Source: Prevotella sp.
Lineage (GTDB): Bacteria > Bacteroidota > Bacteroidia > Bacteroidales > Bacteroidaceae
DNA length: 64,000 nt
NCBI GenBank assembly: GCA_024681875.1
Contig: JAILAA010000133.1
Span: 11,264 to 75,263 of the forward strand
Direction of reading: 5' to 3'
The notes under the pieces are model-generated. The model saw only the letters and a program-made list of their open reading frames with translations, made no database searches and was not told the origin of the DNA. Within the stretch, counting starts at the first letter, position 1. Each line of letters opens with the position of its first letter. Shown here in pieces: positions 34,636 through 58,690 of this stretch. The translations under genes and the position numbers were made by a program.

Positions 34636-34669
34636 GCCCACCCCCGACCCCTCCCCAAGGGAGGGGAGG
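34636..34669. repeat. GC-rich repeat at the 5' end of the TolC remnant
   Basis: GCCCACCCCCGACCCCTCCC with AAGGGAGGGGAGG forms one palindromic unit. It lies at the point where the TolC signal peptide should be encoded. Confidence 0.65.
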
Positions 34670-37471: not shown

Positions 37472-37651
37472 TACTGACCCCACCCCTGCCCCTCCCCTAC
37501 AAGGGAGGGGAGTGGGCTCATGCCAAACCATTCCTATCGGGATTCCGTAGGCACTCCCCTACAAGGGAGTGAGCTCATGCCAAACCATTCCTGTAGGGAT
37601 TCCGTAGGCACTCCCCTCCCTTGTAGGGGAGGGGCAGGGGTGGGGTCAGTA
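37472..37651. mobile_element. Complete MITE-like element with 43-bp perfect terminal inverted repeats
   Basis: 37472-37514 is exactly inverted at 37609-37651. Each arm contains the palindrome CCCCTCCC..GGGAGGGG. The centre carries two direct copies of a unit with CTCATGCCAAACCATTCC and GATTCCGTAGGCACTCCCC. It has no coding capacity. It lies between GH35 and nadB. Confidence 0.85.
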
Positions 37652-37710
37652 TCTTTCGAAAAATTGGATACAACCTACATCAACGAATTAAGATAAAATC
37701 AAACATATAT

Positions 37711-39402
37711 ATGGTTTACAAATATGATTTCCTGATTATAGGAGCAGGCGTGGCAGGCATGAGCTACGCCCTGAAAGTGGCTCGCGAGAAGAAGGGCTCC
37801 GTATGTATCATCTGCAAGACAAGCCTCGAAGAGGCGAACACCTCGTTTGCACAAGGCGGTGTGGCATCGGTCACCAATCTGGCCGTAGACAACTTTGAGA
37901 AGCACATCGAGGACACGATGATTGCCGGCGACTATATCAGCGACCGTGCTGCCGTAGAGCAAGTGGTGCGCATGGCGCCTGAGCAGATCAAGGAGCTGGT
38001 GCAATGGGGCGTGAACTTCGACCGCAAGGAAGACGGTGAGTTCGACCTGCACCGCGAGGGCGGACACTCAGAGTTCCGCATCCTGCATCACGCCGACGAC
38101 ACCGGCGCCGAGATTCAACGCGGACTGATGGAGGCCGTGCGTGCCTGCCCCGACATCACCGTCAAGGAGAACCACTTCGCCGTGGAAATCATCACTCAGC
38201 ACCACATGGGCGTCCGCGTCACACGCCGCTCGCCCAACATCAAGTGTTACGGTGCTTATGTACTCAACTCCTCAACTCCTTCCTCCTCAACTCCTCAAGT
38301 AGACACTTACCTGGCCAAAATCACCGTGATGTGCACAGGCGGCTGCGGCGCCGTCTATATGACCACCTCGAACCCCGTCATCGCTACGGGCGACGGCATC
38401 GCTATGGTCTATCGTGCCAAGGGAACGGTGCAGGATATGGAGTTCGTGCAGTTTCATCCCACTGTCCTCCATCATCCCAGCGAGACGCATCCCGCCTACC
38501 TCATCACTGAGGCGATGCGCGGCTATGGTGGCATCCTGAAACTGCCCAATGGCGAGACGTTCATGGAGAAATACGACGAGCGGCTCTCGCTGGCACCACG
38601 CGATATCGTGGCTCGTGCCATCGACAAGGAGATGAAGATTCACGGCATCGATCATGTCTGCCTCGATGTCACTCACAAGGATCCGGCAGAGACGCGCCGT
38701 CACTTCCCCAACATCTACCAGAAGTGCCTCTCGATGGGCATCGACATCACCACCGACTATATCCCTGTCCGTCCTGCAGCACACTATATGTGCGGAGGCA
38801 TCAAGGTAGACCTCAACGGACAGACGAGCATAGAGCGGCTCTATGCACTGGGTGAATGTTCCTGTACTGGTCTTCATGGTGGCAACCGACTGGCTTCCAA
38901 CTCCCTCATCGAGGCTGTCGTCTATGCCGATGCTGCCGCAAAGGACTCGCTGAAGCACGTCGACCTCTATGACTTCAACGATCAGGTGCCTGAGTGGAAC
39001 GATGAGGGCACGATGACCAACGAGGAGAAGGTGCTCATCACTCAGAGCGTGCGTGAAGTCAACCAGATTATGTCCAACTATGTCGGCATCGTACGCAGCG
39101 ACCTTCGTCTCCATCGGGCCTGGGATCGTCTCGACATGCTCTACGAGGAGACTGAGCGGCTCTTCAAGCGCGTGAAGGCTTCGAAGGACATCTGTGAGCT
39201 GCGCAATATGATCAATGTGGGCTATCTCATCACTCGTTTCGCCCTCGAGCGCAAGGAGAGCCGAGGCCTGCACTACACCATCGACTATCCCGTGCACGCG
39301 TACGATAAAAAAGATGAGGCTCCTGTCAAGGCCCAGCAGATGTCAGAAGAGACGTTGGCTGAGTGCATGCGTGTAATGGCCGCTAACCGACGCAAGGGTT
39401 GA
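37711..39402 (+). CDS. nadB: L-aspartate oxidase
   Basis: A 563-residue flavoprotein that oxidises L-aspartate to iminoaspartate in de novo NAD synthesis. The FAD motif is FLIIGAGVAGMSYAL, the substrate region is SFAQGGVASV and HREGGHSEFRILHH, followed by AHYMCGGIKVDLNGQT and GECSCTGLHGGNRLASNSL. A short in-frame insert (NSSTPSSSTPQ, residues about 186-196) is encoded by TCAACTCC octamers, as in GH127. NadA and NadC are not in the window. No convincing promoter is visible; the gene follows the complete mini-element by 60 nt. Confidence 0.93.
   Translation: MVYKYDFLIIGAGVAGMSYALKVAREKKGSVCIICKTSLEEANTSFAQGGVASVTNLAVDNFEKHIEDTMIAGDYISDRAAVEQVVRMAPEQIKELVQWGVNFDRKEDGEFDLHREGGHSEFRILHHADDTGAEIQRGLMEAVRACPDITVKENHFAVEIITQHHMGVRVTRRSPNIKCYGAYVLNSSTPSSSTPQVDTYLAKITVMCTGGCGAVYMTTSNPVIATGDGIAMVYRAKGTVQDMEFVQFHPTVLHHPSETHPAYLITEAMRGYGGILKLPNGETFMEKYDERLSLAPRDIVARAIDKEMKIHGIDHVCLDVTHKDPAETRRHFPNIYQKCLSMGIDITTDYIPVRPAAHYMCGGIKVDLNGQTSIERLYALGECSCTGLHGGNRLASNSLIEAVVYADAAAKDSLKHVDLYDFNDQVPEWNDEGTMTNEEKVLITQSVREVNQIMSNYVGIVRSDLRLHRAWDRLDMLYEETERLFKRVKASKDICELRNMINVGYLITRFALERKESRGLHYTIDYPVHAYDKKDEAPVKAQQMSEETLAECMRVMAANRRKG
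38264..38299. repeat. Octamer tract TCAACTCC inside nadB
   Basis: Units at 38264, 38272 and 38287 are TCAACTCC, with a 7-bp variant between. They keep the reading frame. Confidence 0.7.
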
Positions 39403-39417
39403 ACCCATCAATGAGAT

Positions 39418-39450
39418 AGGTGGGTCTTAGGTGGGTCTTAGGTGGGTGTT
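39418..39450. repeat. Three tandem 11-bp units after nadB
   Basis: AGGTGGGTCTT occurs twice, then AGGTGGGTGTT. The following 39480-39580 stretch repeats GCTCCGTCCGCAACGG-type motifs. Neither encodes a convincing product. Confidence 0.65.
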
Positions 39451-39663
39451 GCCCTTTTTTGCGAATAGTCTATACCTTTCATGCCTACGGTCCGCACCGG
39501 TCGAGTGCTCCGTCCGCAACGGCTATATGCTCCATCCGCAACCAGCGTCCGCTCCGTCCGCAACGGCCGGGTGCTTCTCTATGTAGTTGCCCCTGCCGTT
39601 ATTTAGTTGCAAAGTTGCAAAAATGCTCGAAATTTCGGCTAATTTATGTTAAATATTCGTTTT

Positions 39664-39747
39664 TAATATCACAATATCACCCATAATATCACACGCTAAT
39701 ATGCTGTATAGTAGTGTGATAAGATGTTGGTGATATTTGTGATATTA
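39664..39747. promoter_or_regulatory. Nested dyad of ATATCAC/GTGATAT motifs
   Basis: TAATATCACAATATCACC (39664-39681) is repeated inverted at 39729-39747 with a single-base difference in length. Inside, TATCACAC (39687-39694) faces GTGTGATA (39714-39721). It could be a multi-site operator or a long RNA hairpin. It lies about 260 nt after nadB and 430 nt before the second ddh. Confidence 0.55.
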
Positions 39748-39889
39748 GTTTTTGAAAAATCAATAGATGTGTACTGACAACCAAACACGGCACTTTTGAA
39801 CTACTTCAATAGCCTCCTTATATATTAAAGAGGTGGTCACTCGTGTCCAAAGAGGCCGTCTTCGTTCTTCTCAGTCAGCCTTCCGTGAA

Positions 39890-39975
39890 AGTAAAACAAG
39901 TTGTTTTACTCTTCAAAGTGGTAGGTTTTGTATACCTAAGTATGGCACTTGCGAAGGTAAAACAACTTGTTTTAC
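39890..39975. promoter_or_regulatory. Twin palindromes GTAAAACAA-N-TTGTTTTAC
   Basis: AGTAAAACAA-G-TTGTTTTACT lies at 39890-39910 and GTAAAACAA-C-TTGTTTTAC at 39957-39975. The two copies have centres 66 nt apart. They look like paired binding sites, upstream of the second ddh promoter. Confidence 0.55.
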
Positions 39976-40138
39976 TTTATCAAGTCATATACTTTCTAGC
40001 ACCAAATGCCTACATCTAGTATTGCTAGTGGCCGACGAACGTTATGCTCGTTACGGTCGAAGTCAAAGGTAAAAGGAACTTTTGTTCGGAAAAGAAAAGA
40101 AAATCAAGTTTTTCTTTGGTTTTCCGCTCGCTTATTTG

Positions 40139-40146
40139 TACCTTTG
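40139..40146 (+). promoter_or_regulatory. -7 element of the second ddh gene
   Basis: TACCTTTG in the context CTCGCTTATTTGTACCTTTG, nearly identical to the GH2 promoter at 1.33 kb. An A-rich imperfect hairpin (about 40089-40126) precedes it. The leader resembles that of the first ddh copy. Confidence 0.6.
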
Positions 40147-40179
40147 CAGCCGATTTACAAACACAAAACGTTTAGAGGC

Positions 40180-41079
40180 ATGAAAAAGATCAGAGCAGCC
40201 GTAGTCGGTTACGGCAACATCGGACGCTATGCCCTCCAGGCACTGGAGGAGGCTCCCGACTTCGAGATTGCAGGCGTGGTACGCCGCAACGGTGCAGAGA
40301 ACAAGCCAGTGGAGCTGGCTGCGTATGACGTGGTGAAGGACATCCGCGAGCTGAAGGATGTGGATGTGGCTATCCTCGCTACTCCTACCCGCTCGTGTGA
40401 AGAATATGCGAAGCAGATCCTGCCGCTGGGCATCAACACGGTGGACTCGTTCGACATCCACACGATGATTCGCGACTACCGCCGCGAGCTGATGGCAGTC
40501 AACAAGCAGACCAATACCGTGAGCGTGATTGCTGCAGGCTGGGATCCGGGCTCTGACAGCATCGTGCGCACATTGATGCAGAGCCTCGCACCTAAGGGAC
40601 TGAGCTATACCAACTTCGGTCCGGGCATGTCGATGGGTCACAGCGTGTGCGTGCGTTCTAAGAAAGGTGTCAAGAATGCACTGTCGATGACCATCCCTCT
40701 GGGCGAAGGCATCCATCGCCGCATGGTGTATGTGGAGCTGGAGGAAGGTGCCAAGCTCGACGAGGTGACTGCCGCCATCAAGGCCGATCCTTACTTTGCC
40801 TCCGACGAGACGCATGTGTTCCAGGTGGAGAGCGTCGACGACGTGCGCGACATGGGTCATGGCGTGCATCTGGTGCGCAAAGGCGTGAGCGGACAGACGC
40901 AGAATCAGCGTTTCGAGTTCAACATGAGCATCAACAATCCCGCCCTGACAGGTCAGGTGCTGGTCAACGTGGCCCGTGCATCGATGCGTCTGGAGCCCGG
41001 CTGCTATACGATGGTCGAGATTCCCGTCATCGATATGCTCCCTGGCGATCGTGAAGAACTGATTTCACATTTAGTATAA
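40180..41079 (+). CDS. ddh: meso-diaminopimelate D-dehydrogenase, copy 2
   Basis: A 299-residue Ddh nearly identical to copy 1; changes are mostly conservative (for example Ser24Glu, Ile33Val, Gln48Ala, Ala162Lys). All cofactor and substrate motifs are kept (VVGYGNIGRYALQAL, AAGWDPGSDS, GPGMSMGHSVCVRS). The ATG at 40180 matches copy 1; the long upstream extension crosses the promoter and is not real. Codon choices differ from copy 1 at many sites, so the duplication is not very recent although the protein is conserved. The stop is 3 nt before the DUF6263 start. Confidence 0.93.
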   Translation: MKKIRAAVVGYGNIGRYALQALEEAPDFEIAGVVRRNGAENKPVELAAYDVVKDIRELKDVDVAILATPTRSCEEYAKQILPLGINTVDSFDIHTMIRDYRRELMAVNKQTNTVSVIAAGWDPGSDSIVRTLMQSLAPKGLSYTNFGPGMSMGHSVCVRSKKGVKNALSMTIPLGEGIHRRMVYVELEEGAKLDEVTAAIKADPYFASDETHVFQVESVDDVRDMGHGVHLVRKGVSGQTQNQRFEFNMSINNPALTGQVLVNVARASMRLEPGCYTMVEIPVIDMLPGDREELISHLV

Positions 41080-41082
41080 ACA

Positions 41083-41970
41083 ATGAAAAAACTATTTCTT
41101 ACAAGCGTTGTGCTGCTGATGGCCGTGATGGCCCAGGCACAGACAAAGATCACCCCGAAGCTGCAGAAAGGCTTCAAGGCAGTGTACACTGAAGTTGCCA
41201 CGAACAATGCCGGTGGCACAGAACAGAAGGTCACCTCCGAGACGGAGTATGTCGTGAGCGACGTCACCCCCGATGGTGCCGTCATCGACATCACGATGAC
41301 AAGCATCGATGCCGGTCAGGCTGACAACGGACCGATGGGAAAGTTGATGTCTCTCTCAGAGTCGGTCATGAAGGGCGTCTGCATCAAGGTACGTACTGAT
41401 GCCGAAGGTCAGGTGAAGGGCGTGGTGAACCTCGACGAGGTCAAGGCCAAGGTCATTCAGCTCGCCGGCTCCATCGTCGACGAGATCATGAAGGAGAGCC
41501 CTGAAGTGTCACAGGCATTGCCCAAGGACGTGCTGATGTCGCAGTTCTCCGAGCAGCTCACTGAGGAATCCCTCATCGCCAGCCTCACCAACAGCGGCGT
41601 GCTGGCCCTCAACGGAAAGACCGTGAGAAACGGTGCCACTGAGAGCGTCAACAACGAGCAGGGCATGAAGCTGAAGCGCATGTATTTCGTCGTGGGCAAG
41701 AACATCATCACCAACTCCACGCTCGACATGACCAAGGACGAGCTGAAGGAGTTCGTCCTCAAGCAGGTCGAGAAGGTGGCTCCCGATCAGGCAGAGATGG
41801 TCAAGCAGAACATCGACGCCGTGATGGGTCAGATGTCGTTCAACGTCACCTCGAAGAGTACTTATGAGATGCAGGATAACGGCTGGGTGAAGAGCATCAA
41901 GACGGAGGCCAGCCAGGACTCCATGGGTCAGAGCGTCAAGCAGACGTCGGAGATCACGCTGAAGCAGTAG
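41083..41970 (+). CDS. DUF6263-like secreted protein, copy 2
   Basis: A 295-residue paralogue of the 30307 gene, with a nearly identical signal peptide (MKKLFLTSVVLLMAVMAQAQ) and the same ordered motifs: EYVVSDVTPDGAVIDIT, LALNGKTVRNGATESV, GMKLKRMYFVVGKNIITNST and DSMGQSVKQTSEITLKQ. The central part has diverged strongly. Function is unknown. The tight coupling to ddh is conserved in both copies, though the gap is 3 nt here and 42 nt in copy 1. Confidence 0.7.
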   Translation: MKKLFLTSVVLLMAVMAQAQTKITPKLQKGFKAVYTEVATNNAGGTEQKVTSETEYVVSDVTPDGAVIDITMTSIDAGQADNGPMGKLMSLSESVMKGVCIKVRTDAEGQVKGVVNLDEVKAKVIQLAGSIVDEIMKESPEVSQALPKDVLMSQFSEQLTEESLIASLTNSGVLALNGKTVRNGATESVNNEQGMKLKRMYFVVGKNIITNSTLDMTKDELKEFVLKQVEKVAPDQAEMVKQNIDAVMGQMSFNVTSKSTYEMQDNGWVKSIKTEASQDSMGQSVKQTSEITLKQ

Positions 41971-41972
41971 AA

Positions 41973-42022
41973 GCCTCACCCCCTAGCCCCCTCTCCAAAG
42001 GGCGAGGGGGAACGCCTGAGGC
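41973..42022. repeat. GC-rich palindromic unit after the second DUF6263 gene
   Basis: GCCTCA (41973-41978) pairs with TGAGGC (42017-42022), enclosing a CCCCCTCTCC..GGGCGAGGGGG stem. It is a variant of the dispersed family and may end transcription. Confidence 0.6.
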
Positions 42023-42078
42023 GAAAAGAGGTAAGAGGTGAGAGAAATGCTGGCAAGCATCTCTCACCTCTCACTTTT

Positions 42079-42225
42079 CATTCCTCATTCCTCATTTCTC
42101 ATTTCTCATTTCTCATTTCTCATTCCTCATTTCTCATTCCTCATTTCTCATTCCTCATTCCTCATTCCTCATTCCTCATTCCTCATTCCTCATTTCTCAT
42201 TCCTCATTCCTCATTCCTCATTTCT
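42079..42225. repeat. Twenty-one tandem heptamers CATTYCT
   Basis: Exactly 147 bp of CATTCCT/CATTTCT units, with one more diverged unit before it. The last unit contains the stop codon of the AraC-type gene. The same heptamer class is present inside terC. Confidence 0.9.
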
Positions 42226-42748
42226 CTCGTGCCTGATACTCCAGCGGCGTGCAGCCCATCTCCATCAGAAACCATCGGTAGAACGACTTGCGGCTCGTAA
42301 AACCACACTCCAGGCTGATGGCCTCAATTGAGAAATTTGGGTGCTCATCTATCATCCTGCAGGCCGCCTTGATGCGGTGATGACAGAGCAATTTGTGTAA
42401 ATTGTTATATTTGGGACAGCATTCAAATGCCTTTTTTAACTTTTTCTGCGTGATGTCGAGGTCTTTGGCGATGTCTTTGATCGATTTGAAGTTCGATGGA
42501 AGGTACAGCTTTTCCTTCTCTATGAGTTTATTGAGTCGTTTCAGAATCTCCTCGTCATTCTCCAGATCGTTCTTTTTCCGGCTCTTTGGTATGCCGGCAT
42601 GAAAATCTGGGAAGTGCTCGCTTAAGTATTTGTTGATGCTGTTTATTTGCTCCATTAGTTCTCGAGATAAGGATAATGCCCTTGCATGCATCTGTGCAAG
42701 TTCTTCCAGTGCTTTGCCTTTGTTCTTCAGGTTTATCATAGCTTTCAA
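42218..42748 (-). CDS. AraC-type helix-turn-helix regulator without ligand domain
   Basis: A 176-residue protein. The N-terminal 70 residues are helical and charged (LEELAQMHARALSLSRELME). The C-terminal about 90 residues form an AraC DNA-binding domain with two helix-turn-helix units: SIKDIAKDLDITQKKLKKAF and FSIEAISLECGFTSRKSFYRW. It lacks a sugar-binding domain and a membrane anchor. It is divergent from the fimbrial operon with about 250 bp between, so it is the best candidate for its regulator; this is inference from position. The stop codon lies in the heptamer tract, so the 3' end may have been altered by it. Confidence 0.8.
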   Translation of the reverse strand: MKAMINLKNKGKALEELAQMHARALSLSRELMEQINSINKYLSEHFPDFHAGIPKSRKKNDLENDEEILKRLNKLIEKEKLYLPSNFKSIKDIAKDLDITQKKLKKAFECCPKYNNLHKLLCHHRIKAACRMIDEHPNFSIEAISLECGFTSRKSFYRWFLMEMGCTPLEYQAREK

Positions 42749-42782
42749 TGGGTTTGTTTCCGGTTTATTATAAATAAGCGTG

Positions 42783-42790
42783 CAAATATA
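42783..42790 (-). promoter_or_regulatory. -7 element of the AraC-type gene
   Basis: TATATTTG on the minus strand followed by GCACGC, 35 nt before the start. Confidence 0.5.
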
Positions 42791-42916
42791 ACAAATTTAT
42801 TTCAATTGACGAAACCTTTTTTCTTTTTTATTTGTGTCATTTTCACGTTTTGAACTATGATTTCCGTTTTGATACATGCTTAAAGGTAAAAAGTGTTTAG
42901 GTTGCAAAAAAAGTTG

Positions 42917-42924
42917 TAATTTTG
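42917..42924 (+). promoter_or_regulatory. -7 element of the fimbrial operon
   Basis: TAATTTTG followed by GCACAG. It is about 70 nt upstream of the first gene, leaving room for a regulated leader. A -33 box is not clear, which fits an activator-dependent promoter. Confidence 0.5.
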
Positions 42925-42994
42925 CACAGAATATTCGAAACATAGACTATTATTCGTTAGGATAAATAACGTTTTTTATAAACAGATTAAAAGT

Positions 42995-43576
42995 ATGCAA
43001 TACATGCAAAGGACACTAGGCAGAGCGCTGTTGTTGCTGGCTTTCCTCGCAGGAAGCCATCAGGCAGAGGCACAGATCTCGTTGAAGAACAATCTGCTGT
43101 ATGATGCCAGCTTGACTCCCAACATCGGCATGGAGGTGGGACTGGCACGCAAGTGGACGTTTGATGCCACATTTGGCCTCAACCCCTGGACGTTCAACGA
43201 CAACAAGAAGTGGCGTCACTGGCTTGTACAGCCGGAGGCGCGCTATTGGTTCTGCGAGAAGTTCAACGGCCACTTCGTTGGTCTCCATCTCATGGGTGGT
43301 GAGTTCAACGCTGGCGGAGTGAAGTTCCCATTCGGCATTGCCCCCTGCCTGCACCACAACCGCTATGAGGGATGGTATGCTGGTGGCGGCCTGGTCTATG
43401 GCTACCAATGGCCCGTCAGTCGTCACTTCAGCGTCGAGACCGTCATTGGTCTTGGCTACGACTACCTCAAGTACAAGAAGTTCCCCTGTGAGCATTGCGG
43501 CACACAGACGGGCGAAGGCCATTACAACTATATTGGCCCGACCAAGGTAGCCCTTAACATGATTTACAACCTCTAA
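42995..43576 (+). CDS. DUF3575 outer-membrane protein, first gene of fimbrial operon
   Basis: A 193-residue protein with a signal peptide (cut near AEAQ) and alternating beta-strands of an eight-strand barrel. The pattern ISLKNNLLYDASLTPNIGMEVGL, EARYWFCEKFNGHFVGLHLMGG and KFPFGIAPCLHHNRYEGWYAGGG fits DUF3575. Members of this family often open Bacteroidales Mfa/Fim fimbrial clusters with a DUF3868 partner. A role in fimbrial export or anchoring is inferred from context only. ATG codons at 42995 and 43004 are both possible starts. Confidence 0.82.
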   Translation: MQYMQRTLGRALLLLAFLAGSHQAEAQISLKNNLLYDASLTPNIGMEVGLARKWTFDATFGLNPWTFNDNKKWRHWLVQPEARYWFCEKFNGHFVGLHLMGGEFNAGGVKFPFGIAPCLHHNRYEGWYAGGGLVYGYQWPVSRHFSVETVIGLGYDYLKYKKFPCEHCGTQTGEGHYNYIGPTKVALNMIYNL

Positions 43577-43593
43577 CCCTTATATATGTAATA

Positions 43594-45084
43594 ATGTATA
43601 TGACTATCAAGTTACGCCATATCTTAGCAGGCCTGTTGATCGTGGCCTCGCAGTCGCTGAGCGCACAGACGCTGAGCGACGGCCAGACGGTTGTGAAGAA
43701 TGCACTGCTTACACCCCAGAGCGGACAGATGTTGCTCACGATGGACGTCTGTCTCGATGAGCTCAAGCTCAAGCACAACCAGTCGGTGGTGATGCATCCC
43801 GTACTCTATTCTCTCGACGGCACTCAGAAGGCAGCCTTTGATCCCATGGTCATCGACAGCCATGCCGAGTATGTGCTCTACGAGCGCGGCCTCTCGAATG
43901 TAGCCTACAGCAACGTTCCTCATGTCAGCCGTCGCAGCGGAAAGCCTCAGACTGAATATTATCGCAGCACCGTGCCCTACGAGTCATGGATGGACGGCTA
44001 CGAGCTGCGCCTCGAGGAGGATTTGTGCGCCTGCGGCGACCTGTCGCAGCTGCCTTATGTCACTTCCTTGCGTCGTGACCTGCCGCCTGATCCCTACACC
44101 CTCATTGCACTGACCAACCTCGAACCCACTCAGGACAAGGCTCCCTATGAGCTGCATGGATCGGCTTTCATCAACTTCGTGGTGAACAAGTGGGAGATGA
44201 AGCCCGACTATATGGACAACCGCCGCGAGCTGCGCAAGATTACCGATACACTCGATATCATGGTGGCCGACAAGAACATCACCGTCAAGGAGATCAAGAT
44301 TCACGGATGGGCATCGCCTGAGTCGCCATTCACCCACAACCGCATGCTGGCCACCAACCGTGCCAAGAGCCTCACCGAATGGCTGCGGAAGAACTATGAC
44401 CTCCCCGCTAGCGCCTTTGCTCCCGCCGAGGCCACGCCTGAGAACTGGATTGGCCTGCGCGAAGCAGTGGAGAACATGGACGGCACGCAGCTGGCCCACC
44501 GCGATGAGATCCACTCCATCATACGTGAGCTGCTGCTGAAGGAAGACCGTGAGATAGAGCGCACAGCTGATGCCACTGAGGCACGCATCAAGTCCAGCTA
44601 CCCGCAGGACTATCAGTACCTGCTCCGGACTGTCTATCCCTCGTTGCGCCGCTCCGACTACGAGATTACGTTCAACGTACGCACGTTCAACACCATCGAC
44701 GAGTGCTTGCAGATCTACCGCACCAAGCCCTATCAGCTCTCGCAGCATGAGCTTTGGCGCGTGGCACAGACCTTCGAGCCCTACTCCGACGAGTATAACC
44801 GAGCCCTGCAGACAGCACTCAACAACTATCCTGACGATGAGGCTGTCAACCTCAACCTGGCCAATGTCGCCATACAGCAGCGCGATCCGCTGAAGGCCGA
44901 GACACTGCTGCAGCGGGCAGGAAACAGCGGCGCTGCCGAGAATGCCCGTGCCGTCGTATGCATCCTTCGCGGACAGTATGACGAGGCTGCACGCCACCTC
45001 GACAACGCACAGCAGAAGGGCATAGATGTCAGCCGCAACCGTCAGGCCATACAGAAGATGCTTCCCTATAAGGACAGAAAATAA
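43594..45084 (+). CDS. DUF3868 protein with OmpA-like and TPR-like regions
   Basis: A 496-residue envelope protein with a signal peptide (ends SLSAQ). The N-terminal about 180 residues match DUF3868. An OmpA-type peptidoglycan-binding segment follows (IKIHGWASPESPFTHNRMLATNRAKSLTEWL, residues about 230-260). The C-terminal third is helical with TPR-like repeats (DEYNRALQTALNNYPDDEAV). The layout suggests a scaffold linking fimbrial assembly to the cell wall. It lies 17 nt after the DUF3575 gene and 42 nt before the major subunit gene. Confidence 0.82.
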   Translation: MYMTIKLRHILAGLLIVASQSLSAQTLSDGQTVVKNALLTPQSGQMLLTMDVCLDELKLKHNQSVVMHPVLYSLDGTQKAAFDPMVIDSHAEYVLYERGLSNVAYSNVPHVSRRSGKPQTEYYRSTVPYESWMDGYELRLEEDLCACGDLSQLPYVTSLRRDLPPDPYTLIALTNLEPTQDKAPYELHGSAFINFVVNKWEMKPDYMDNRRELRKITDTLDIMVADKNITVKEIKIHGWASPESPFTHNRMLATNRAKSLTEWLRKNYDLPASAFAPAEATPENWIGLREAVENMDGTQLAHRDEIHSIIRELLLKEDREIERTADATEARIKSSYPQDYQYLLRTVYPSLRRSDYEITFNVRTFNTIDECLQIYRTKPYQLSQHELWRVAQTFEPYSDEYNRALQTALNNYPDDEAVNLNLANVAIQQRDPLKAETLLQRAGNSGAAENARAVVCILRGQYDEAARHLDNAQQKGIDVSRNRQAIQKMLPYKDRK

Positions 45085-45126
45085 TCAAATTATTCTTTAA
45101 CATTTTAATCTCTTTATTAATCATTT

Positions 45127-46998
45127 ATGAAAAAGTTTAGTCTTTTCGCTCTCGCTGCAGCTGGACTGCTGCTCGGAGCCTGCTCGTCGGACGATAGTAT
45201 CGACAGCAAAGTGAATGGCGGAGAATTCACCGATGGCGCTTTTATCGGCATTTCTCTGCAATTGCCCTCTACTGCTACGGCTACCCGTGCCAATGAGGAC
45301 TTTGACGACGGTGAAGAAGATGAGTTCGCCGTTAAGAATGCCACGCTCTATCTCTTCCAGGGTGCGTCTGAGGCCGGTGCCAAGTATATGGCTCATTATA
45401 CTATTGGCACGACCTTCCAGGATGATCCAGCTAAAAACATCACCAATTCTTATTGCGAGGCAACTCTTATCGAAAATGAGGTAGCTGACAAAATTAAGAA
45501 TGCAGCTAATAACGTCTATGCTTACGTTATCGTGAACCACAATGGTGTGATTCCTGCCATGGACGAGAATGTGACATTCGCCGATTTCTGCAAATGGGAG
45601 TTCAATGTGATCGGAGCCGATATCGCTGCCAAGAAGAACATTGGTGAAGGTGGTCTGCTCATGACCAGTTCGCCCATCTGTGATACCAAGGGCGGATCTG
45701 TAGCTGCTCCCACGGATGCTGCTAATTACAAGACTCTCATCCCTGTTGACAAGACCAAGATTTTCTCCACTGCTGAGGCTGCAAAGGCTGCTCCTGCAGC
45801 TTGTATCTATGTAGAGCGTGCTGCTGTGAAGATCACTGTCGGAACTAAGCTCGAGAATCCAACATTCGGAGAGGGTGATGATGCAGTCGCTGTTACATTC
45901 AATGGTTGGCAGATCATCAACTATGAGCCTACATACTACAACACCCGTCAAGTGGATCCTGTGTGGGGTAACTGGGCTTCGGACGCTCTGGTTGCTGATT
46001 TCCCACTGTTTAAAACCGCTAACGCTTATCGCTTCGTTTCTGGTACTGAATTCGGACCTCAGATTCCCGGTACTGGCGACCATACCACTGGCTTCCGTAC
46101 CTATTTTGCCAAGGACGTCCAGTACGATAAAGACGCTACGCTTCTGAGACCTCAGGCTGACATTAATGGTACATGGATTGGAATGGGAGAGCATGGCTAT
46201 ACCACGGAAAATACCTTCGATGTGGCTCGTATGGATTGGCCTAACACCACGCAGGTGGCTCTGAAAGCCTCTTTCGGCAATGGTAGTTTCTACACCCTCA
46301 ATGGTGGTGATGTTATGTACAAAGAGGCAGACATCAAGACTCTGTTGGCTACTAGCATCTTTAACCTTCCTACTGTGACCAACCTGATGAATACAGCTGT
46401 TCAGGAAGTGGCTGTTGCTGATCCTACCACAACTGCTCCGAAGCCTAGCTATACAGGAAAGATTGTTGTGAATTTCGACACTCCTACTGCATCGAAGGAT
46501 GGCGTGACCTATACCGCAGAGTTTAAGATCTCATCTGCTGACGGTGGTACCCTGACCGAGACTGCCGTATCTGCTGCTACGACGACCGCCCTCAATAATG
46601 CTATCGCTGCTGCATATCCTTCCTTCGTCATCAGCTTCCACAAGGATGGTGTTGCTTACTATAATGTGCGCATCAAGCACTTCGGTGACTATGAGACTCC
46701 TTGGAGCTCCACGAAACCCTTTGCTACTGTCGTTCCTGGTATCACCATTCCTCAGATCTACGGTTATACGAATAATGCGGATGAGCAGCTGCTTGCCAAC
46801 AAGCGCTTCCTCGGTCGCTATGGCGTAGTTCGCGACAACTGGTACAAGCTGGAGGTTACTGGTGTCAAGCATATTGGTACTGCAGAGCCTGTCGATGTGA
46901 CAAAGCAGGACATTCCTGACGATGAGATTGAGAACTATATCTCCATCCACGTCCACATCCTGCCGTGGGTGCTCCGCAACCAGGATGTTGTGCTCTAA
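45127..46998 (+). CDS. Mfa1/FimA-like major fimbrial subunit (type V pilin)
   Basis: A 623-residue precursor. Lipobox LLGACSSD (Cys19) marks export as a lipoprotein. Arg54 in TATRAN is a likely site for trypsin-like maturation, which in type V pili frees a groove for donor-strand exchange. The C-terminus (IHVHILPWVLRNQDVVL) is the likely donor strand. The sequence is Ala-, Thr- and Gly-rich, and codons are enriched for GCT and ACT compared with neighbours, as expected for a highly expressed structural protein. It should form the shaft of the appendage. A hairpin after the gene may lower expression of the downstream genes. Confidence 0.85.
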   Translation: MKKFSLFALAAAGLLLGACSSDDSIDSKVNGGEFTDGAFIGISLQLPSTATATRANEDFDDGEEDEFAVKNATLYLFQGASEAGAKYMAHYTIGTTFQDDPAKNITNSYCEATLIENEVADKIKNAANNVYAYVIVNHNGVIPAMDENVTFADFCKWEFNVIGADIAAKKNIGEGGLLMTSSPICDTKGGSVAAPTDAANYKTLIPVDKTKIFSTAEAAKAAPAACIYVERAAVKITVGTKLENPTFGEGDDAVAVTFNGWQIINYEPTYYNTRQVDPVWGNWASDALVADFPLFKTANAYRFVSGTEFGPQIPGTGDHTTGFRTYFAKDVQYDKDATLLRPQADINGTWIGMGEHGYTTENTFDVARMDWPNTTQVALKASFGNGSFYTLNGGDVMYKEADIKTLLATSIFNLPTVTNLMNTAVQEVAVADPTTTAPKPSYTGKIVVNFDTPTASKDGVTYTAEFKISSADGGTLTETAVSAATTTALNNAIAAAYPSFVISFHKDGVAYYNVRIKHFGDYETPWSSTKPFATVVPGITIPQIYGYTNNADEQLLANKRFLGRYGVVRDNWYKLEVTGVKHIGTAEPVDVTKQDIPDDEIENYISIHVHILPWVLRNQDVVL

Positions 46999-47021
46999 TA
47001 GCAGATTTGTACTCTAATCAT

Positions 47022-47044
47022 GGCTGGCGGAATGGCCGCCGGCC
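47022..47044 (+). terminator. Hairpin between major subunit and anchor genes (possible attenuator)
   Basis: GGCTGGCGG (47022-47030), loop AATGG, CCGCCGGCC (47036-47044), one G-U pair. There is no strong U-run after it, so partial termination or protection of the upstream mRNA end is more likely than full stop. Confidence 0.5.
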
Positions 47045-47074
47045 TTATAAAAAAGAATTCAATAATTTGTAACA

Positions 47075-48238
47075 GTGAAACAGATGCAGTTCATACATAA
47101 AACGATCGTGGCTTTAGTAGCCAGCACCGGGCTGGGAGCCTGCTCCCTGATGACCGACAGTCTCGACGACTGTCCACAGGGACTCAGTGTGGAGTTTGTA
47201 TACGACTACAACGTGGAAAGAGCAAACATGTTCAACGACCACGTCGGAAGTGTCACGCTCTATGTCTACGACCAAGCCGGACAGCTGGTGCGTACGCAGA
47301 CAGAGGACAACACATCCTCTGCCCAGCCCCTGCGCAATCCCAACTACCGCATGACCGTCGATGGACTGCAACCTGGCGAATATCGGCTACTGGCGCTGGC
47401 CAACCAGCGTCGGTATGCCGACATCAGCCAGCTATCCGGCGTACGCTACGTGCGCGACGGACAGACTGGTGCGATGAACAATCTTAATGTCACACTGGCC
47501 AGCGTGCCCGGCTCGCAGGCCGCCACACTCATCAAGCAACAGCTGGATACCCTCTGGCATGGTACGCTGCGCTCAGCACAGTACACCCAGAACCCTGTGA
47601 CACGCGTCGACGACCCTGTGCTCGTCAATGCGCAGACGGTTACCGTTCGCGAACATGAGCTTACCAGCTGTGTCGTCAGCCTCGTGCGCGACACTAAGCG
47701 ACTCCACATCTCACTCCGTCAGGCCGATGATCCTGCTCACTGCGATATCGCTGACTACGAGATCTTTATCACCGACCAGAACGGAAAGATACTCTGGGAC
47801 AACAACGTCGACACCGATGGTACTCCTCAGCTGACCTATCGGCCATTCGACGAATGGAACACATACTACAGCTCTGTCACTGCACAGAGCTACGACAGCC
47901 GCCCCGCCAGCGATGAAGGACTGGAGGAGACGGCACATGCCGACCTCGACTTCAACCGCCTCATGCTGCGACAGGGCAACAGCACCGTCGCTCCCGCCAT
48001 GCTCTATATCAACTATAGGCCCGACGGACATCAGGTGGCTGCTATTAACCTGCCCGAGATCCTGCAGCAGGGACGAGGTGCTTTCGAGCGTTTTGTCTAC
48101 CGTCCGCAGGAGTTCCTCGACAGAGCCTACGACTATCGCCTCGACTTTATCCTTATTGGCGAGAAATGGAGCTTCATTACCCTTGGCATACATTCACTGC
48201 CTTGGACATTGCGCATCCAGAATGTAGAGCTCAACTAA
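47075..48238 (+). CDS. FimB/Mfa2-like fimbrial anchor subunit
   Basis: A 387-residue predicted lipoprotein (GLGACSLMTD). The mature start SLDDCPQGLSVEFVYDYN is characteristic of the FimB/Mfa2 family, and VDGLQPGEYRLLALANQ is typical of the N-terminal sandwich. The C-terminus GIHSLPWTLRIQNVELN resembles that of the major subunit. Mfa2 caps and anchors the pilus to the outer membrane and limits length. It lacks the TRA cleavage motif found in the other subunits, in agreement with an anchor role. The start may be GTG at 47075 or ATG at 47084. Confidence 0.85.
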   Translation: MKQMQFIHKTIVALVASTGLGACSLMTDSLDDCPQGLSVEFVYDYNVERANMFNDHVGSVTLYVYDQAGQLVRTQTEDNTSSAQPLRNPNYRMTVDGLQPGEYRLLALANQRRYADISQLSGVRYVRDGQTGAMNNLNVTLASVPGSQAATLIKQQLDTLWHGTLRSAQYTQNPVTRVDDPVLVNAQTVTVREHELTSCVVSLVRDTKRLHISLRQADDPAHCDIADYEIFITDQNGKILWDNNVDTDGTPQLTYRPFDEWNTYYSSVTAQSYDSRPASDEGLEETAHADLDFNRLMLRQGNSTVAPAMLYINYRPDGHQVAAINLPEILQQGRGAFERFVYRPQEFLDRAYDYRLDFILIGEKWSFITLGIHSLPWTLRIQNVELN

Positions 48239-48265
48239 TTATCATTTACAGACGACAATAACAGC

Positions 48266-49948
48266 ATGAAACTGCTACAGCATATTATAATCCCTTTGGC
48301 CTTGTCCAGCATCGTCGCTTGCCAGGACTATGATGCCGAACACTACATCCAACAGAATGTGGTGGGCGACAGCATCTATGTGCAGCTGACGTTGGACATC
48401 GCAAATAGTGCCACTACCAGGGCAGGCGAAAGACCCAATGGTGGTGAAGAGGGAGACGGATGGGAATATGGTTTAAAGTATGAGAACCAACTGCACAACT
48501 TTACCGTTTTTGTGCTTGGTTATGGTGCTGATATCAACGCTGACGCTAGCACACGGTTTGTTGGTAGTCGCTACTTCAGTGAGGAAGAGATTGGCGACTC
48601 TATACCAGGGAAACAAATACAACCAAAGGAATACGATGTTATTAAGGATGTGCTTTCCTACGATTTCACGATTCCCATCATCCGTGAGCGACAGGATCGC
48701 ATGCCCAACCCGAATACTTTTCGCTTCTATGTGGTGGCCAATAGTGGCGACCTTACTACAACATGCCAGACCGTGGGTGACTTGCGTGCTGCAAAGCCTT
48801 TGAAAACTTGGACTGCTGCCACCACCGACTCTCCTACGCCAAGTTACTTTGTCATGAGTAATGAGAATGACAAATACTATGCTTCTGGCGCTGGATCTTC
48901 CATCGATCCTGTTCGCCTGCATGTTACCATTGAACGACTGGCAGCGCGCATTGACTATGTCCCGACCGGAGCTGAGATTACTGCTGACGGACTGCGTTAT
49001 CCCATCGCTGCTCCTCCTATTCAGGTAGTTTCTGCACCTACGCGCGCTGACGATGACACTCCATTGGCATATCTCTATGTCGACCGCATGGCGATTCTCA
49101 ATGGTAGCCAGCAGCCTACCTATTTTATCAAGCGCGTGGCAGACGCTATTAATAGTACCGATATTTCCTATCTAGGCGACGAAACCCCAACTCCTCGTGG
49201 TGTCGCTACAAATTACGTCATTGACCCTTATTCAGCACAGAAGACAGAGACAAACCGCACCAATGTCACATTCCTGAACACACTTTTTGGTGCAAGCCAA
49301 ATCAGCAATGCTGCTACACTCATCGCCTCCGATGCAGCTAAGCTGCCAACCGTAGCCGATACGAAATCTCCCATTATCCTGGGCTATGTCAACGAGAATA
49401 CCTTCGATAAAGCGATGGCTTGGTCGGAATACACCACAGGTGTCATTATGCAATGTCGCTATTTCCCTGTGGTCAACTTTTTCACTGATTATGACCCCAC
49501 AATTGACGGAACTACACTAGAGGTGTCTGATGGTTTAACAGCATATCTTGATGGCCTGACACCTGGTAATTATAGACTTGGCGATGACTTTTGGATGGTT
49601 GAGCCCAATCAGAAATATATCGACGAAGCTGATCGCCTTTACTTTAGCAATGAAGAAGATGCTGTTGCCTTTGCTACTAACACACCGCAATATCGTTTCG
49701 GTAAGGTCGTGAAGTATACTGGTGGTGTGTGCTATTATGTAACCTATATGCGTCACTCCAACAAGGTGGAGGTCATCCACAATACAATGGAATTTGGCAT
49801 TGTCCGCAACAATATCTATCGTATAAGACTCAATCCTACCACGGGTCCTGGTACACCTACTGTCGACTATCGCCATCCAGAGGAATTGAAGGCTCGTATC
49901 TATGTAAAGAAATGGCTCGCTGTTGAGCATCCTATCATATATGTATAA
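48266..49948 (+). CDS. Accessory fimbrial subunit (Mfa-like)
   Basis: A 560-residue predicted lipoprotein (SSIVACQDYD, Cys19). The possible maturation Arg52 lies in ATTRAG, at the same distance from the N-terminus as in the major subunit. A C-terminal segment MEFGIVRNNIYRIRLNPTTG followed by LKARIYVKKWLAVEHPIIYV is typical of FimA-type proteins. It could form the adaptor between shaft and tip, like Mfa3 or Mfa4 of Porphyromonas. The gene follows the anchor gene by 27 nt. Confidence 0.75.
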   Translation: MKLLQHIIIPLALSSIVACQDYDAEHYIQQNVVGDSIYVQLTLDIANSATTRAGERPNGGEEGDGWEYGLKYENQLHNFTVFVLGYGADINADASTRFVGSRYFSEEEIGDSIPGKQIQPKEYDVIKDVLSYDFTIPIIRERQDRMPNPNTFRFYVVANSGDLTTTCQTVGDLRAAKPLKTWTAATTDSPTPSYFVMSNENDKYYASGAGSSIDPVRLHVTIERLAARIDYVPTGAEITADGLRYPIAAPPIQVVSAPTRADDDTPLAYLYVDRMAILNGSQQPTYFIKRVADAINSTDISYLGDETPTPRGVATNYVIDPYSAQKTETNRTNVTFLNTLFGASQISNAATLIASDAAKLPTVADTKSPIILGYVNENTFDKAMAWSEYTTGVIMQCRYFPVVNFFTDYDPTIDGTTLEVSDGLTAYLDGLTPGNYRLGDDFWMVEPNQKYIDEADRLYFSNEEDAVAFATNTPQYRFGKVVKYTGGVCYYVTYMRHSNKVEVIHNTMEFGIVRNNIYRIRLNPTTGPGTPTVDYRHPEELKARIYVKKWLAVEHPIIYV

Positions 49949-49954
49949 AAAAGT

Positions 49955-51502
49955 ATGAAGAAGAATATCACAATATGTTGTCTCCTTGCGCTCGCCACTG
50001 TTTTGGGGCTGGGCGCATGTAGCAGTGACGACGTAGACCAGATTCCTGCCGGTATGGGGCAGGTGCAGGTGAGACTCACCGCACGCTATAATGGAGCTAC
50101 ACGTGCCACGGGCGACTGGCTCGATCCCACCGACACCAAGGAAAAGATCCACGAATACTGGGTGGCCTTCGTCAACAGCAGCAATGTCGTTGAAGAACTA
50201 GTGCATGGCGATGCCCTGGGTGCTGAGGAGCATACCTTCCTCTTTATACTGCCCCCAGGTAATTATACTGCATATGCCTTTGCCAACCTGCCCGAAGGTA
50301 CTCCCGAAACAGGAGAAAGTCCTGCAGTACCAGGCACTCCATTTTCTTCATTAGGTATAGTCAAAGGCTCAGCCATGCCCGACCTGACCAACGTAAAGCT
50401 AGCCACCACGAATGGATGGACAAAAAACATTCCCATGTCGAGCCATACCGGTGGACAGCCCATCACCGTTATCGAGGCTGAGAACCAGTCGTTTGAGATA
50501 GAGCTTATCCGAACGATGGCTAAGCTCGAGCTTAACTTCATCAACAACTCGCAGCAGCAGATGGATGTACTGGGCTATGAGATTTTCCCCTTGACTAAGA
50601 CCAACGTAAGTTTGCTTGAGCCCGCCAACCCTGAATCTATTCTCAAAGGCGATTCTATTTCTTACAAAGTGGAGTTCCCCACGGGGAGTCCACTTGTCTT
50701 GCCTGCCAAGAGTACTGAGGTAGGAGCAGAGCCTGCTACTCAGACCACATATCTCTATGTCAATGAGACCAACGCTACGGCTACTTCTACCAAAAATCAG
50801 TATTCCATCCGTATTTTTGTTCAACGCCACAGGGTCGACAATACAACCAATCCTCCTTCCACTATTGATGTAGAAGAAATGCGCTATGGCTTTACTGTGA
50901 ACAGCAAGACTCAAGGCGATGCTTGGAAAACTGGCGAAACCTATGGCTTTGACTATATCCGCCGTAATGACTGGATCAAGCTCCCCATTATGTTCACCGA
51001 CTGGACATTCCGCATTGAGGCATTGCCCTTCCCGCCCATCGCAGGTTTCCAGTCGCGTGTGCTCTCGGCCGATGCCTTGAGTATCACCTTCAGTTCGGGT
51101 GGATATATCTTCCTGCGTCCCATGTTCCGCAACAACCATGACCCCGAAGGTGTCTGGCGCGGTTTTGACGACGGGGATGTTACCTTCAAACTTCCTGGTG
51201 AGCCTTATATAGTAAATGGTACAGCAGCTCAGGAACAGGTAATTACCGACGAAAATGTGTATGGTTGGACAACTCCGGCTACTGGTGTGGCTGAGTCTAT
51301 CGACCCAACAACAGGTACGGGTGTTATCCTTACGGGCGATCTTGCTATCTTTGAGCAGCGTTTCGTGCAGCTTCCTTCGGGTGACATCGTGGGTAAGCTG
51401 ACCAACAACAAGATAAAGGGTATGGTCACGGTTACCATCAAGCTTCAGCTTGAAGGTTTCGACTACCAGTTCAACTATAACATCTACGAGGACAATTTAT
51501 AA
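49955..51502 (+). CDS. Accessory fimbrial subunit with extra C-terminal domain
   Basis: A 515-residue predicted lipoprotein (GLGACSSDDVD, Cys22) with a possible maturation Arg50 in GATRATG. The N-terminal domain is fimbrillin-like (FLFILPPGNYTAYAFANLPEG). The segment IMFTDWTFRIEALPFPP, where other subunits end, is followed here by about 150 more residues. This suggests a tip-proximal subunit that cannot be followed by another one in the usual way. It lies 6 nt after the previous gene and 2 nt before the giant gene, so the three are translated together. Confidence 0.72.
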   Translation: MKKNITICCLLALATVLGLGACSSDDVDQIPAGMGQVQVRLTARYNGATRATGDWLDPTDTKEKIHEYWVAFVNSSNVVEELVHGDALGAEEHTFLFILPPGNYTAYAFANLPEGTPETGESPAVPGTPFSSLGIVKGSAMPDLTNVKLATTNGWTKNIPMSSHTGGQPITVIEAENQSFEIELIRTMAKLELNFINNSQQQMDVLGYEIFPLTKTNVSLLEPANPESILKGDSISYKVEFPTGSPLVLPAKSTEVGAEPATQTTYLYVNETNATATSTKNQYSIRIFVQRHRVDNTTNPPSTIDVEEMRYGFTVNSKTQGDAWKTGETYGFDYIRRNDWIKLPIMFTDWTFRIEALPFPPIAGFQSRVLSADALSITFSSGGYIFLRPMFRNNHDPEGVWRGFDDGDVTFKLPGEPYIVNGTAAQEQVITDENVYGWTTPATGVAESIDPTTGTGVILTGDLAIFEQRFVQLPSGDIVGKLTNNKIKGMVTVTIKLQLEGFDYQFNYNIYEDNL

Positions 51503-51504
51503 GC

Positions 51505-57837: not shown

Positions 57838-57858
57838 GCTTGAAACACTGACAAATAT

Positions 57859-57897
57859 AAAAAAATGTGGAAGTCGCTATGACCTCCACATTTTTTT
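57859..57897 (+). terminator. Terminator of the fimbrial operon
   Basis: AAAAAAATGTGGAAGTC (57859-57875) pairs with 57881-57897 (one G-U or mismatch), loop GCTAT, ending in a T7 run. A classic intrinsic terminator. Confidence 0.85.
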
Positions 57898-58064
57898 GTA
57901 TCAACAAGTGATGCAAGAAAAGATAAGTGATACTGGGCCTTACCTCTGATTGGATTGACTCGGGATTTTTTTTTCTGCGATTAAGGATATTTAACGCGAA
58001 ATGGTGCAAGGTTTCTTGATTCCGACGTTTATTGAGAAAAACATTTCTATATATGATTATGAGT

Positions 58065-58478
58065 ATGAAAACACTGAAGACTTTACTGATGCTTGCTGTG
58101 CTCTTTCTCGCATCTTGTGAGAGCACTGATCCCGAAGGAAAGTGGGACTCTATGATATGGAAAGCTGACGTGCCAGTACAGAAAACGGATGGTTTCTATC
58201 AAGTTCCGGCAGCAGGAGCGGAGCTGATATTCTCGTGTCAGAACTATTCCTTTCCTTGGATTTCTGATGCAGAGTCGAACGGGGAATACTTTTTCCCTCC
58301 ACGTGAAGAGAATGACTTTCATACCATAACGACTGACTGGTTTAGGGCTGAAGCAAAGGGCAACAAACTCCATGTAAAGTTTGACGCTAATGGAACAGCT
58401 AAGGAGAGAACCATGAAGCTAACTGTCACGGCTGGGGATATCTTCTATACCTTCGGGTTCAGACAGTCAGCTAACTAA
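58065..58478 (+). CDS. Small lipoprotein, possibly BACON-like
   Basis: A 137-residue predicted lipoprotein (MKTLKTLLMLAVLFLASCES, lipobox Cys18). The mature part has alternating strands: FYQVPAAGAELIFSCQNYSF, DWFRAEAKGNKLHVKFDANG and ERTMKLTVTAGDIFYTFGFRQ. This looks like a single BACON or other Ig-like domain, but the match is loose. The start could be ATG at 58065 or at 58059. It lies between the fimbrial terminator and a complete mini-element, and has no clear promoter. Confidence 0.6.
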   Translation: MKTLKTLLMLAVLFLASCESTDPEGKWDSMIWKADVPVQKTDGFYQVPAAGAELIFSCQNYSFPWISDAESNGEYFFPPREENDFHTITTDWFRAEAKGNKLHVKFDANGTAKERTMKLTVTAGDIFYTFGFRQSAN

Positions 58479-58507
58479 CTAAGTCCTTGCCTTGCAAGCG
58501 ATAGAGT

Positions 58508-58620
58508 TACAGACCCCACCCCTGCCCCTCCCCTTGAAGGGAGGGGAGTTCCATTCGGATTGTTGTCTGGCGGTAGCCACTCCCCTCCCTTCAAGGGGAG
58601 GGGCAGGGGTGGGGTCTGTA
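58508..58620. mobile_element. Complete MITE-like element with 42-bp perfect terminal inverted repeats
   Basis: 58508-58549 is exactly inverted at 58579-58620, with a 29-nt centre. Arms contain CCCCTGCCCCTCCCCTTGAA and are almost the same as those at 37472. It has no coding capacity. Confidence 0.85.
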
Positions 58621-58690
58621 TTACTTACTTTTGGAAAAGTTTGCTGCTAACTAAGAAGGCTACGGCAGGAAGGAGGATGGCCTTTTAGGC

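What the first reader, a model, noticed from the sequence alone, without database searches (positions are those of the whole stretch)
37472..58620. A family of small GC-rich palindromic elements with perfect terminal inverted repeats
Complete copies at 37472-37651 and 58508-58620 have 42-43 bp perfect inverted ends that share the core CCCCACCCCTGCCCCTCCCC. Partial or single-end copies lie at 8092, 21813, 31194, 34255, 34636 and 41973, and composite copies within GH127 (16911) and GH35 (35539). About ten copies in 64 kb is very dense. They have no coding capacity, and no transposase is present in the window, so they must be moved in trans or spread by another route. Elements with similar peptides (PPxxGGxGGES-like) are, from general knowledge, seen in many Bacteroidetes, but a mechanism is not known to me.
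Basis: partly seen in the sequence, partly recalled or inferred. Interest (0 to 1): 0.75.

Follow-up and report, generated by a model that had tools for sequence, protein, structure and literature searches.

The report
Transposase-less C-rich palindromes invading Prevotella genes
Rumen Prevotella genomes carry a family of short C-rich hairpin repeats that keep appearing between genes and, in reading frame, inside conserved proteins, with no sign so far of the transposases that normally spread such repeats, so how they spread is an open and testable question.

Summary
The two complete copies (37472-37651, 58508-58620) are real, with perfect 43- and 42-bp arms. The unit is about 40 nt: usually TA(CAG/CTG/GTC/GAG)ACCCCACCCC-N2/3-CCCCTCCC-loop-GGGAGGGG-AGTG. 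Its G-rich strand is a G-quadruplex motif next to a hairpin. Some copies lie in frame inside genes (cysteinyl-tRNA synthetase, GH127, GH35).

Of 299 genomes of the genus, 82 carry the core, 1 to 208 copies each; the reversed-pattern control is zero. G308 has 208 and its sister G014, mostly 94-97% identical where aligned, 14. Window sites 8092, 35537, 37472 and 58508 are empty in relatives. One GH35 loop changed state at least 7 times on a tree of 80. So the family is spreading.

The usual movers are not supported. Y1/RAYT genes do not track copy number, Y1/RAYT loci are not clearly enriched, no unit has GT[AG]G at the foot, and IS630 is in 1 of 21 copy-rich genomes. At the coding sites compared, units replace native codons; in a G308 beta-mannosidase-like gene two inverted units stand in place of 37 and 38 nt, length-for-length, around a native linker. 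I favour replacement-type copying plus whole-pair dispersal: an RPE/REPIN-like family without a RAYT link.

The parts
37472..37651 (.). complete inverted pair between GH35 and an FAD-dependent oxidoreductase gene; arms 37472-37514 and 37609-37651, inner linker partly duplicated
   Evidence: site empty in L003 and L007
58508..58620 (.). complete inverted pair; arms 58508-58549 and 58579-58620, 29-nt linker; TA at both outer ends
   Evidence: folds as ssDNA at -60 kcal/mol, z -13.5; site empty in G308
58479..58643 (.). 165 bp present in the window and absent from G308, bounded by a 9-bp direct repeat GCTAACTAA; holds the 58508 pair plus flanks of about 28 and 25 bp
8092..8134 (-). single unit in frame in cysteinyl-tRNA synthetase (ORF 7662-9227 -); peptide about NPTPAPPLKGAGNENG
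   Evidence: absent from relatives
16911..17063 (-). inverted pair in frame in GH127 (ORF 15327-17486 -)
35537..35684 (+). inverted pair plus a partial repeat of one end, in frame in GH35 (ORF 34905-37424 +), in the loop between LREIY and LFQCDW
21811..21850 (-). single unit at the 3' end of an AI-2E-family transporter ORF (21811-22923 -)
31192..31226 (+). truncated unit just 3' of ORF 30307-31188, next to an unrelated palindrome block
34634..34670 (+). single unit at the 5' end of a short outer-membrane efflux (OEP) ORF 33730-34641 -
34255..34305 (-). weak C-rich unit-like stretch in frame in the same OEP ORF; doubtful member
   Evidence: not found by the profile
41973..42017 (+). weak C-rich unit-like stretch 3' of ORF 41083-41970; doubtful member
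   Evidence: not found by the profile

Best explanation
This is a family of REP/RPE-like palindromic units, about 40 nt, C-rich, with a G-quadruplex motif beside a hairpin, spreading in Prevotella and present on some phage contigs. Units occur singly, as head-to-head pairs of about 113-125 bp between genes, and in frame in variable loops of proteins. Shown: lineage-specific gains, very uneven copy numbers, loss of native codons at the coding sites compared, and length-neutral replacement around a kept native linker in one gene. Inferred: units are copied into new sites when a replication fork stalled at a hairpin or G-quadruplex switches template using short C/G-run homology, overwriting a few tens of native nucleotides; a second, inverted unit may be copied from the first. 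Intergenic whole pairs also travel as a block, sometimes inside larger inverted-repeat elements. No dedicated transposase is needed in this model.
For: Copy number 0-208 over 299 genomes, 82 positive, reversed control 0; sisters G308 (208) and G014 (14), aligned segments 89-98% identical, mostly 94-97%. Beta-mannosidase-like GH2 gene (Pfam Mannosidase_ig): G308 SPRI[TAHPQPLPRGGE]PVKQVAALPSEENAKAM[AQQSPSLGEGSGVG]FLDL; unit-free G014 has segments of the same length (37/37 and 38/38 nt) and the 47-nt linker with 45 identical; the unit-free outgroup G017 has the first segment of equal length and the second one residue longer. CysRS lost AVSPQ, GH35 lost GKE, an RNA-methyltransferase-like gene in L076 lost native codons present in L075. 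No target duplication seen by eye at these coding sites. GH35 loop: 9 changes, at least 7 forced, for the 12 palindrome-like rows of 80 (10 and 7 for 14 rows). 30 of 35 hairpins found in sequence not chosen by motif carry the two-run tail on the correct side (paired and related copies are not independent). Y1/RAYT and IS630 not required. Perfect arms within an element, 42/42 and 43/43, while the two elements differ.
Against: Intergenic pairs share homologous linkers and a 113-bp body in 7 of the 9 G308 pairs printed, which looks like transposition of a whole element. The 58508 site has a 9-bp direct repeat. Some larger elements that carry the unit have TIRs and 5- or 8-bp TSD-like repeats. Length-neutral replacement is clean in one gene only; the second replaced native block is identical to the unit at 19 of 38 positions (the first at 8 of 37), so re-conversion of an old decayed unit is not excluded there. 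One of 15 Fisher tests (40 or more copies, Y1 E<=1e-15) gave p=0.049. In the GH35 tree 18 of 500 shuffles needed as few changes, so filled rows are somewhat clustered.
Confidence: 0.42

Rival explanations
1. Classical REPIN: units are moved in trans by a Y1 (RAYT/TnpA-REP) transposase that nicks the hairpin and inserts it without target duplication.
For: Unit size, hairpin plus conserved flank, head-to-head pairs and alternating clusters; no TSD seen at coding sites; Y1 hits occur in 155 of 299 genomes; a truncated Y1 gene in G012 has a pair just 3' of it. Bacteroidetes have RAYT subclasses 2.4 and 2.6, the latter with atypical repeats (PMC6006769, passages).
Against: GT[AG]G at the hairpin foot in 0 of 225 units. 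G308, the richest genome with 208 copies, and G185, G202, G259, G210, G111, G227, G155, G163 have no Y1 hit at E 0.001. 20 or more copies: Y1 in 16 of 25 against 139 of 274 others, p=0.22. 88 Y1/RAYT loci (70 distinct) hold 6 units in 4 loci, close to background. The three loci read closely have other palindromes by the gene. Y1 absence in MAGs can be a gap.
Confidence: 0.2
2. MITE: the element is a non-autonomous relic of a DDE insertion sequence, moved by that IS's transposase through its terminal inverted repeats; coding copies are remnants.
For: Long perfect inverted arms; TA at both outer ends in 16 of 28 pairs and at one end in 9 more; larger carriers with TIRs and TSD-like repeats in G012 (5 bp, two of three read) and G007 (8 bp, one of three read) (by eye); 9-bp direct repeat at 58508.
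Against: IS630 (TA-target) DDE found in 1 of 21 copy-rich genomes. Among 20 copy-rich loci of four genomes the shared repeats reach at most 325 bp, too short for a transposase gene. Carrier TIRs and TSD lengths differ between genomes while the C-rich core is shared. Single units with native-codon loss at coding sites do not fit TIR transposition.
Confidence: 0.22
3. Ordinary transcription terminators or ancestral repeats.
For: Several intergenic copies lie just 3' of genes (window 31194, 37472, 58508).
Against: Presence/absence between relatives; in-frame copies inside enzymes; no TTTT within 12 nt after any tailed hairpin, + strand reading.
Confidence: 0.05
4. Hitch-hiking: the unit has no mobility of its own; phages, MITEs and recombination between relatives carry it.
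For: Units in rumen phage contigs L243, L244, L246, in frame in a phage gene; units inside different MITE-like carriers; a 98%-identical segment shared with G308 beside 75% ones.
Against: Does not explain replacement of 37-38 nt inside a gene whose surroundings are about 97% identical and whose linker is kept.
Confidence: 0.11

Closest known systems
Rickettsia palindromic elements (RPE) and CGTC REPs
   Same: Short palindromes, single or paired, in frame inside many conserved proteins; no known transposase (PMC3733652 and PMC2229807, passages read)
   Different: Different phylum; C-rich sequence with two extra C-runs (G-quadruplex motif) beside the hairpin; CGTC near an end in only 7 of 225 units
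REPIN/BIME (GTAG REPs) with RAYT
   Same: Hairpin unit of about 40 nt, head-to-head pairs, alternating clusters, intragenic copies in some species (PMC3733652, PMC6006769, passages)
   Different: No GT[AG]G at the foot (0 of 225), no RAYT found flanked by the unit, no tie to Y1 presence
MITEs with TA termini (RUP, ERIC, Correia)
   Same: About 105-150 bp, long TIRs, TA at both ends in 16 of 28 pairs; such MITEs with open frames can be fused in frame (PMC2229807, Table 1 passage)
   Different: No partner IS found; IS630 absent from 20 of 21 copy-rich genomes; coding copies replace native codons

Membership tests
REP/REPIN (GTAG) | GT[AG]G tetranucleotide at the hairpin foot | tested here: not met
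   0 of 225 deduplicated units; 30 of 225 have it somewhere within 16 nt on the inner side
REP/REPIN (GTAG) | Cognate RAYT gene flanked by the repeat | tested here: not met
   6 units in 4 of 88 Y1/RAYT loci (70 distinct), none on both sides in the three read closely; the fetched loci are the best hits, not every Y1 gene
REP/REPIN (GTAG) | Inverted pairs of hairpin units in intergenic space | tested here: met
CGTC REP / RPE | CGTC tag at one end | tested here: not met
   CGTC near either end in 7 of 225
CGTC REP / RPE | In-frame insertion in conserved protein genes | tested here: met
   CysRS, GH127, GH35, beta-mannosidase-like GH2, phage gene
CGTC REP / RPE | No dedicated transposase | tested here: inconclusive
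   Y1 and IS630 tested and not required; other transposase families not tested
MITE | Terminal inverted repeats | tested here: met
   42- and 43-bp perfect arms
MITE | Constant-length target site duplication | tested here: inconclusive
   9-bp repeat at one window site; 5 and 8 bp in some carriers; none seen at coding sites
MITE | Autonomous IS with the same ends | tested here: inconclusive
   none seen: IS630 in 1 of 21 genomes, repeats at 20 copy-rich loci at most 325 bp; other IS families not searched
Intrinsic terminator | T-run after the hairpin | tested here: not met
   no TTTT within 12 nt, + strand reading

The most novel reading that the evidence does not exclude
A palindromic repeat that spreads without any transposase, by replication template switching driven by its own G-quadruplex/hairpin, overwriting native DNA length-for-length and so rewriting protein loops without shifting the frame.
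Probability: 0.22. Interest if true: 0.85.

Novelty: new variant of a known kind. Interest (0 to 1): 0.6.

Why it matters
Palindromes inside protein genes were described in Rickettsia, Wolbachia and several other bacteria, and how those without a known transposase move is open (PMC3733652, passages). Here the same kind of thing is found in abundant gut bacteria, one of them a cultured strain (Xylanibacter brevis ATCC 19188), with sister genomes that differ about 15-fold in counted copies. That makes the spreading mechanism directly observable. It also shows a route by which conserved enzymes, including a tRNA synthetase, may gain new loops.

Tried and rejected
RAYT/Y1 mobilisation: PF01797 in 20 genomes and in 299, NF047646 in 20, statistics and flank scan; not supported. 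IS630 as TA-target mover; rejected. Larger IS carrying the unit: comparison of 20 copy-rich loci with one another shows shared repeats of 151-325 bp only. Rfam: no match in the window at gathering thresholds. Plasmid and phage record collections: no match (copy 37472 searched in plasmids, copy 58508 in phages). Intergenic sites 37472 (L003, L007) and G308 sites A and B are filled/empty, but the intergenic DNA is too diverged to place exact ends. At G308 site C the sister keeps a short piece that looks like a scar of a lost element. CysRS structure: mean pLDDT 47.3, too poor for a fold search; only the local statement that the insert is a low-confidence loop between two helices is used. My early idea that the units sit in RAYT flanks fell away after reading. 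A BLAST run failed on parameters and was repeated. Nine literature searches in the held open-access library listed no paper whose title or abstract start describes this family in Prevotella; one search listed 20 of 142, 20 of 21 and 20 of 50, and subscription papers are not held.
Full report
WHAT IS THERE. The window is from an uncultured Prevotella-like bacterium: its GH35 gene is closest to rumen Prevotella MAGs, and no whole genome is held for it. The two complete copies are exact as described, and the core is far above chance (6 matches against 0.02 expected). A profile built from eight window units gave 75 hits at E 0.1 over 1.63 Mb of window plus loci (some loci had been fetched by the motif) and none in the reversed sequence. 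129 deduplicated units were collected with a pattern that itself asks for C-runs and a hairpin and aligned on the loop. What that alignment adds is the limits: the outer end is usually TA(CAG/CTG/GTC/GAG)ACCCC, the stem is mostly 8 bp, the inner end AGTG, and beyond that the flanks are close to random.

G-QUADRUPLEX MOTIF. The G-rich strand reads GGGGAGGGGCAGGGGTGGGG. In sequence fetched without using the motif (80 GH35 loci, 40 CysRS/GH127 loci, the window; 1.69 Mb) a hairpin pattern that does not ask for the tail finds 35 hairpins against 1.85 per block-shuffled copy; 30 of 35 carry the two extra runs on the correct side, 4 have none and 1 has them on the wrong side. Paired arms and related loci are not independent. 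Where the runs are present, the spacer before the stem varies in sequence and length (loci mostly chosen by the motif). That fits a structural constraint; quadruplex formation itself is not tested. The whole 58508 pair folds as single-stranded DNA at -60 kcal/mol, z -13.5; single units fold only modestly better than shuffles (z -0.8 to -2.2).

IN CODING SEQUENCE. Three copies or pairs are in frame inside conserved enzymes of the window. In CysRS, 17 of 20 relatives have a five-residue loop where the window has NPTPAPPLKGAGNENG; three have other lengthenings. In GH35 the loop is 12 residues between fixed motifs in 66 of 80 and longer in 14; 12 of the 14 look palindrome-derived, in at least three sequence flavours (DNA read for nine of them, the rest judged by peptide), while L066 and L079 do not. 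On a tree built without the loop (quick method, SH-aLRT support only) the 12 need 9 changes, at least 7 forced by well-supported branches; 18 of 500 label shuffles needed as few. The window's three nearest relatives are empty. A second GH35 loop holds single units in L013, L050, L063 and L073. A phage gene has C-rich inserts in the same linker in six of the ten related contigs read (12 found), two of them identical where read.

POLYMORPHISM. Core copies: 11 of 20 genomes, then 82 of 299 genomes of the genus, 1 to 208 each, reversed control 0. Window site 58508 is empty in G308, 98% identical on one flank and 90% on the other: the window has 165 extra bp bounded by GCTAACTAA. Deletion in G308 between those repeats is an alternative reading. 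Site 37472 is empty in L003 and L007. G014 aligns to G308 at 89-98%, mostly 94-97%, over the parts compared, but has 14 counted copies against 208; G014 is the smaller assembly (2.7 against 3.7 Mb) and MAG assembly may hide repeats, since contigs often end in them (G007).

HOW SITES CHANGE. The most telling case is a GH2 gene with mannosidase Ig domains. G308 has two inverted units; G014 and the more distant G017 have none. Against G014 the units stand in place of native sequence of the same length, 37 for 37 and 38 for 38 nt, and the 47-nt linker between them is kept, 45 of 47 identical. In G017 the first segment has the same length in residues and the second is one residue longer. A third unit in the same gene adds five residues. 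In CysRS, GH35 and L076 native codons are also lost. This is not what a clean insertion gives. Against it: the second native block in G014 matches the unit at 19 of 38 positions, so an old decayed unit may have been renewed there; and the intergenic pairs in G308, 113 bp in 7 of 9 printed, have homologous linkers and look like whole-element dispersal.

WHO MOVES IT. Y1 hits occur in 155 of 299 genomes. Genomes with 20 or more copies have Y1 in 16 of 25, others in 139 of 274 (p 0.22); nine of those 25 have none, including the richest. Of 15 threshold pairs tested one reached p 0.049. Over 88 fetched Y1/RAYT loci, 70 of them distinct and many weak or partial hits, there are 6 units in 4 loci, 2.2 per 100 kb against 1.4 background. 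No unit of 225 has GT[AG]G at the foot. TA at both outer ends in 16 of 28 pairs suggested an IS630-type MITE, but IS630 was found in 1 of 21 copy-rich genomes. In G012 and G007 the unit lies inside larger inverted-repeat elements with different TIRs and, by eye, 5- and 8-bp TSD-like repeats in some copies. The core is shared and the carriers differ, so the unit is not simply the end of one MITE.

KNOWN KINDS. [quoted passage not shown] PMC2229807, passages). Bacteroidetes RAYTs of subclass 2.6 have atypical repeats (PMC6006769, passages). A survey of structured RNAs lists palindromic candidates in Bacteroidetes (PMC8040213, passages); whether any is this family could not be checked. The G-rich heptameric repeats of Xanthomonas and Nostoc (PMC4692102, listing and abstract start only) appear to be a different thing. 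The family therefore works like RPE/REPIN but fails their sequence tags and the RAYT link: a new variant of a known kind.

LIMITS. Most genomes are MAGs. Counts by pattern miss diverged copies. Only two transposase families were surveyed. The length-neutral replacement is shown in one gene. TSD and junction calls were made by eye. The structure prediction was poor.

Noticed in passing
window 31258-31446: A different palindrome block (CCCCGAAGGGGC...GCCCCGTCGGGG with ACAGGCAGGGG) of the kind found beside a Y1 gene in L117; it lies next to the truncated C-rich copy at 31194.
   Followed up: partly
window 63703-64000: Near-perfect 147-bp palindrome with a 4-nt gap at the window end, possibly an assembly fold-back.
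   Followed up: no
window 42070-42230: Heptamer tandem array (CATTTCT/CATTCCT)n beside the weak copy at 41973; a different heptamer-like array (TTTCAAG)n fills the insert-prone linker of phage contigs L286/L287.
   Followed up: no
window 29365-31188 and 40006-41970: Duplicated gene pair (diaminopimelate-dehydrogenase-like plus a gene without Pfam match), each copy followed directly by a C-rich stretch of a different flavour.
   Followed up: no
window 33730-34641: TolC/OEP-like ORF that starts inside a C-rich unit; probably 5'-truncated.
   Followed up: no
window 42957-45191 and 58032-58478: 98% identical to G308:C18 while neighbouring parts are about 75-80%, suggesting recent recombination between species.
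   Followed up: partly
L169, L174, L175, L176, L183, L189: Another palindrome (CTTGCGTCCC...GGTAGCAAG...) sits in or beside the loop of the C-rich hairpin in G005 and G017: nested palindromes.
   Followed up: no
L245, L247: The same 22-nt core in two viral contigs that, by eye, do not look like Prevotella phages; the architecture may be wider than this genus.
   Followed up: no
window 45127-51502: Fimbrillin/Mfa2 gene cluster followed by a 2110-aa ORF without a Pfam match at E 1e-5.
   Followed up: no
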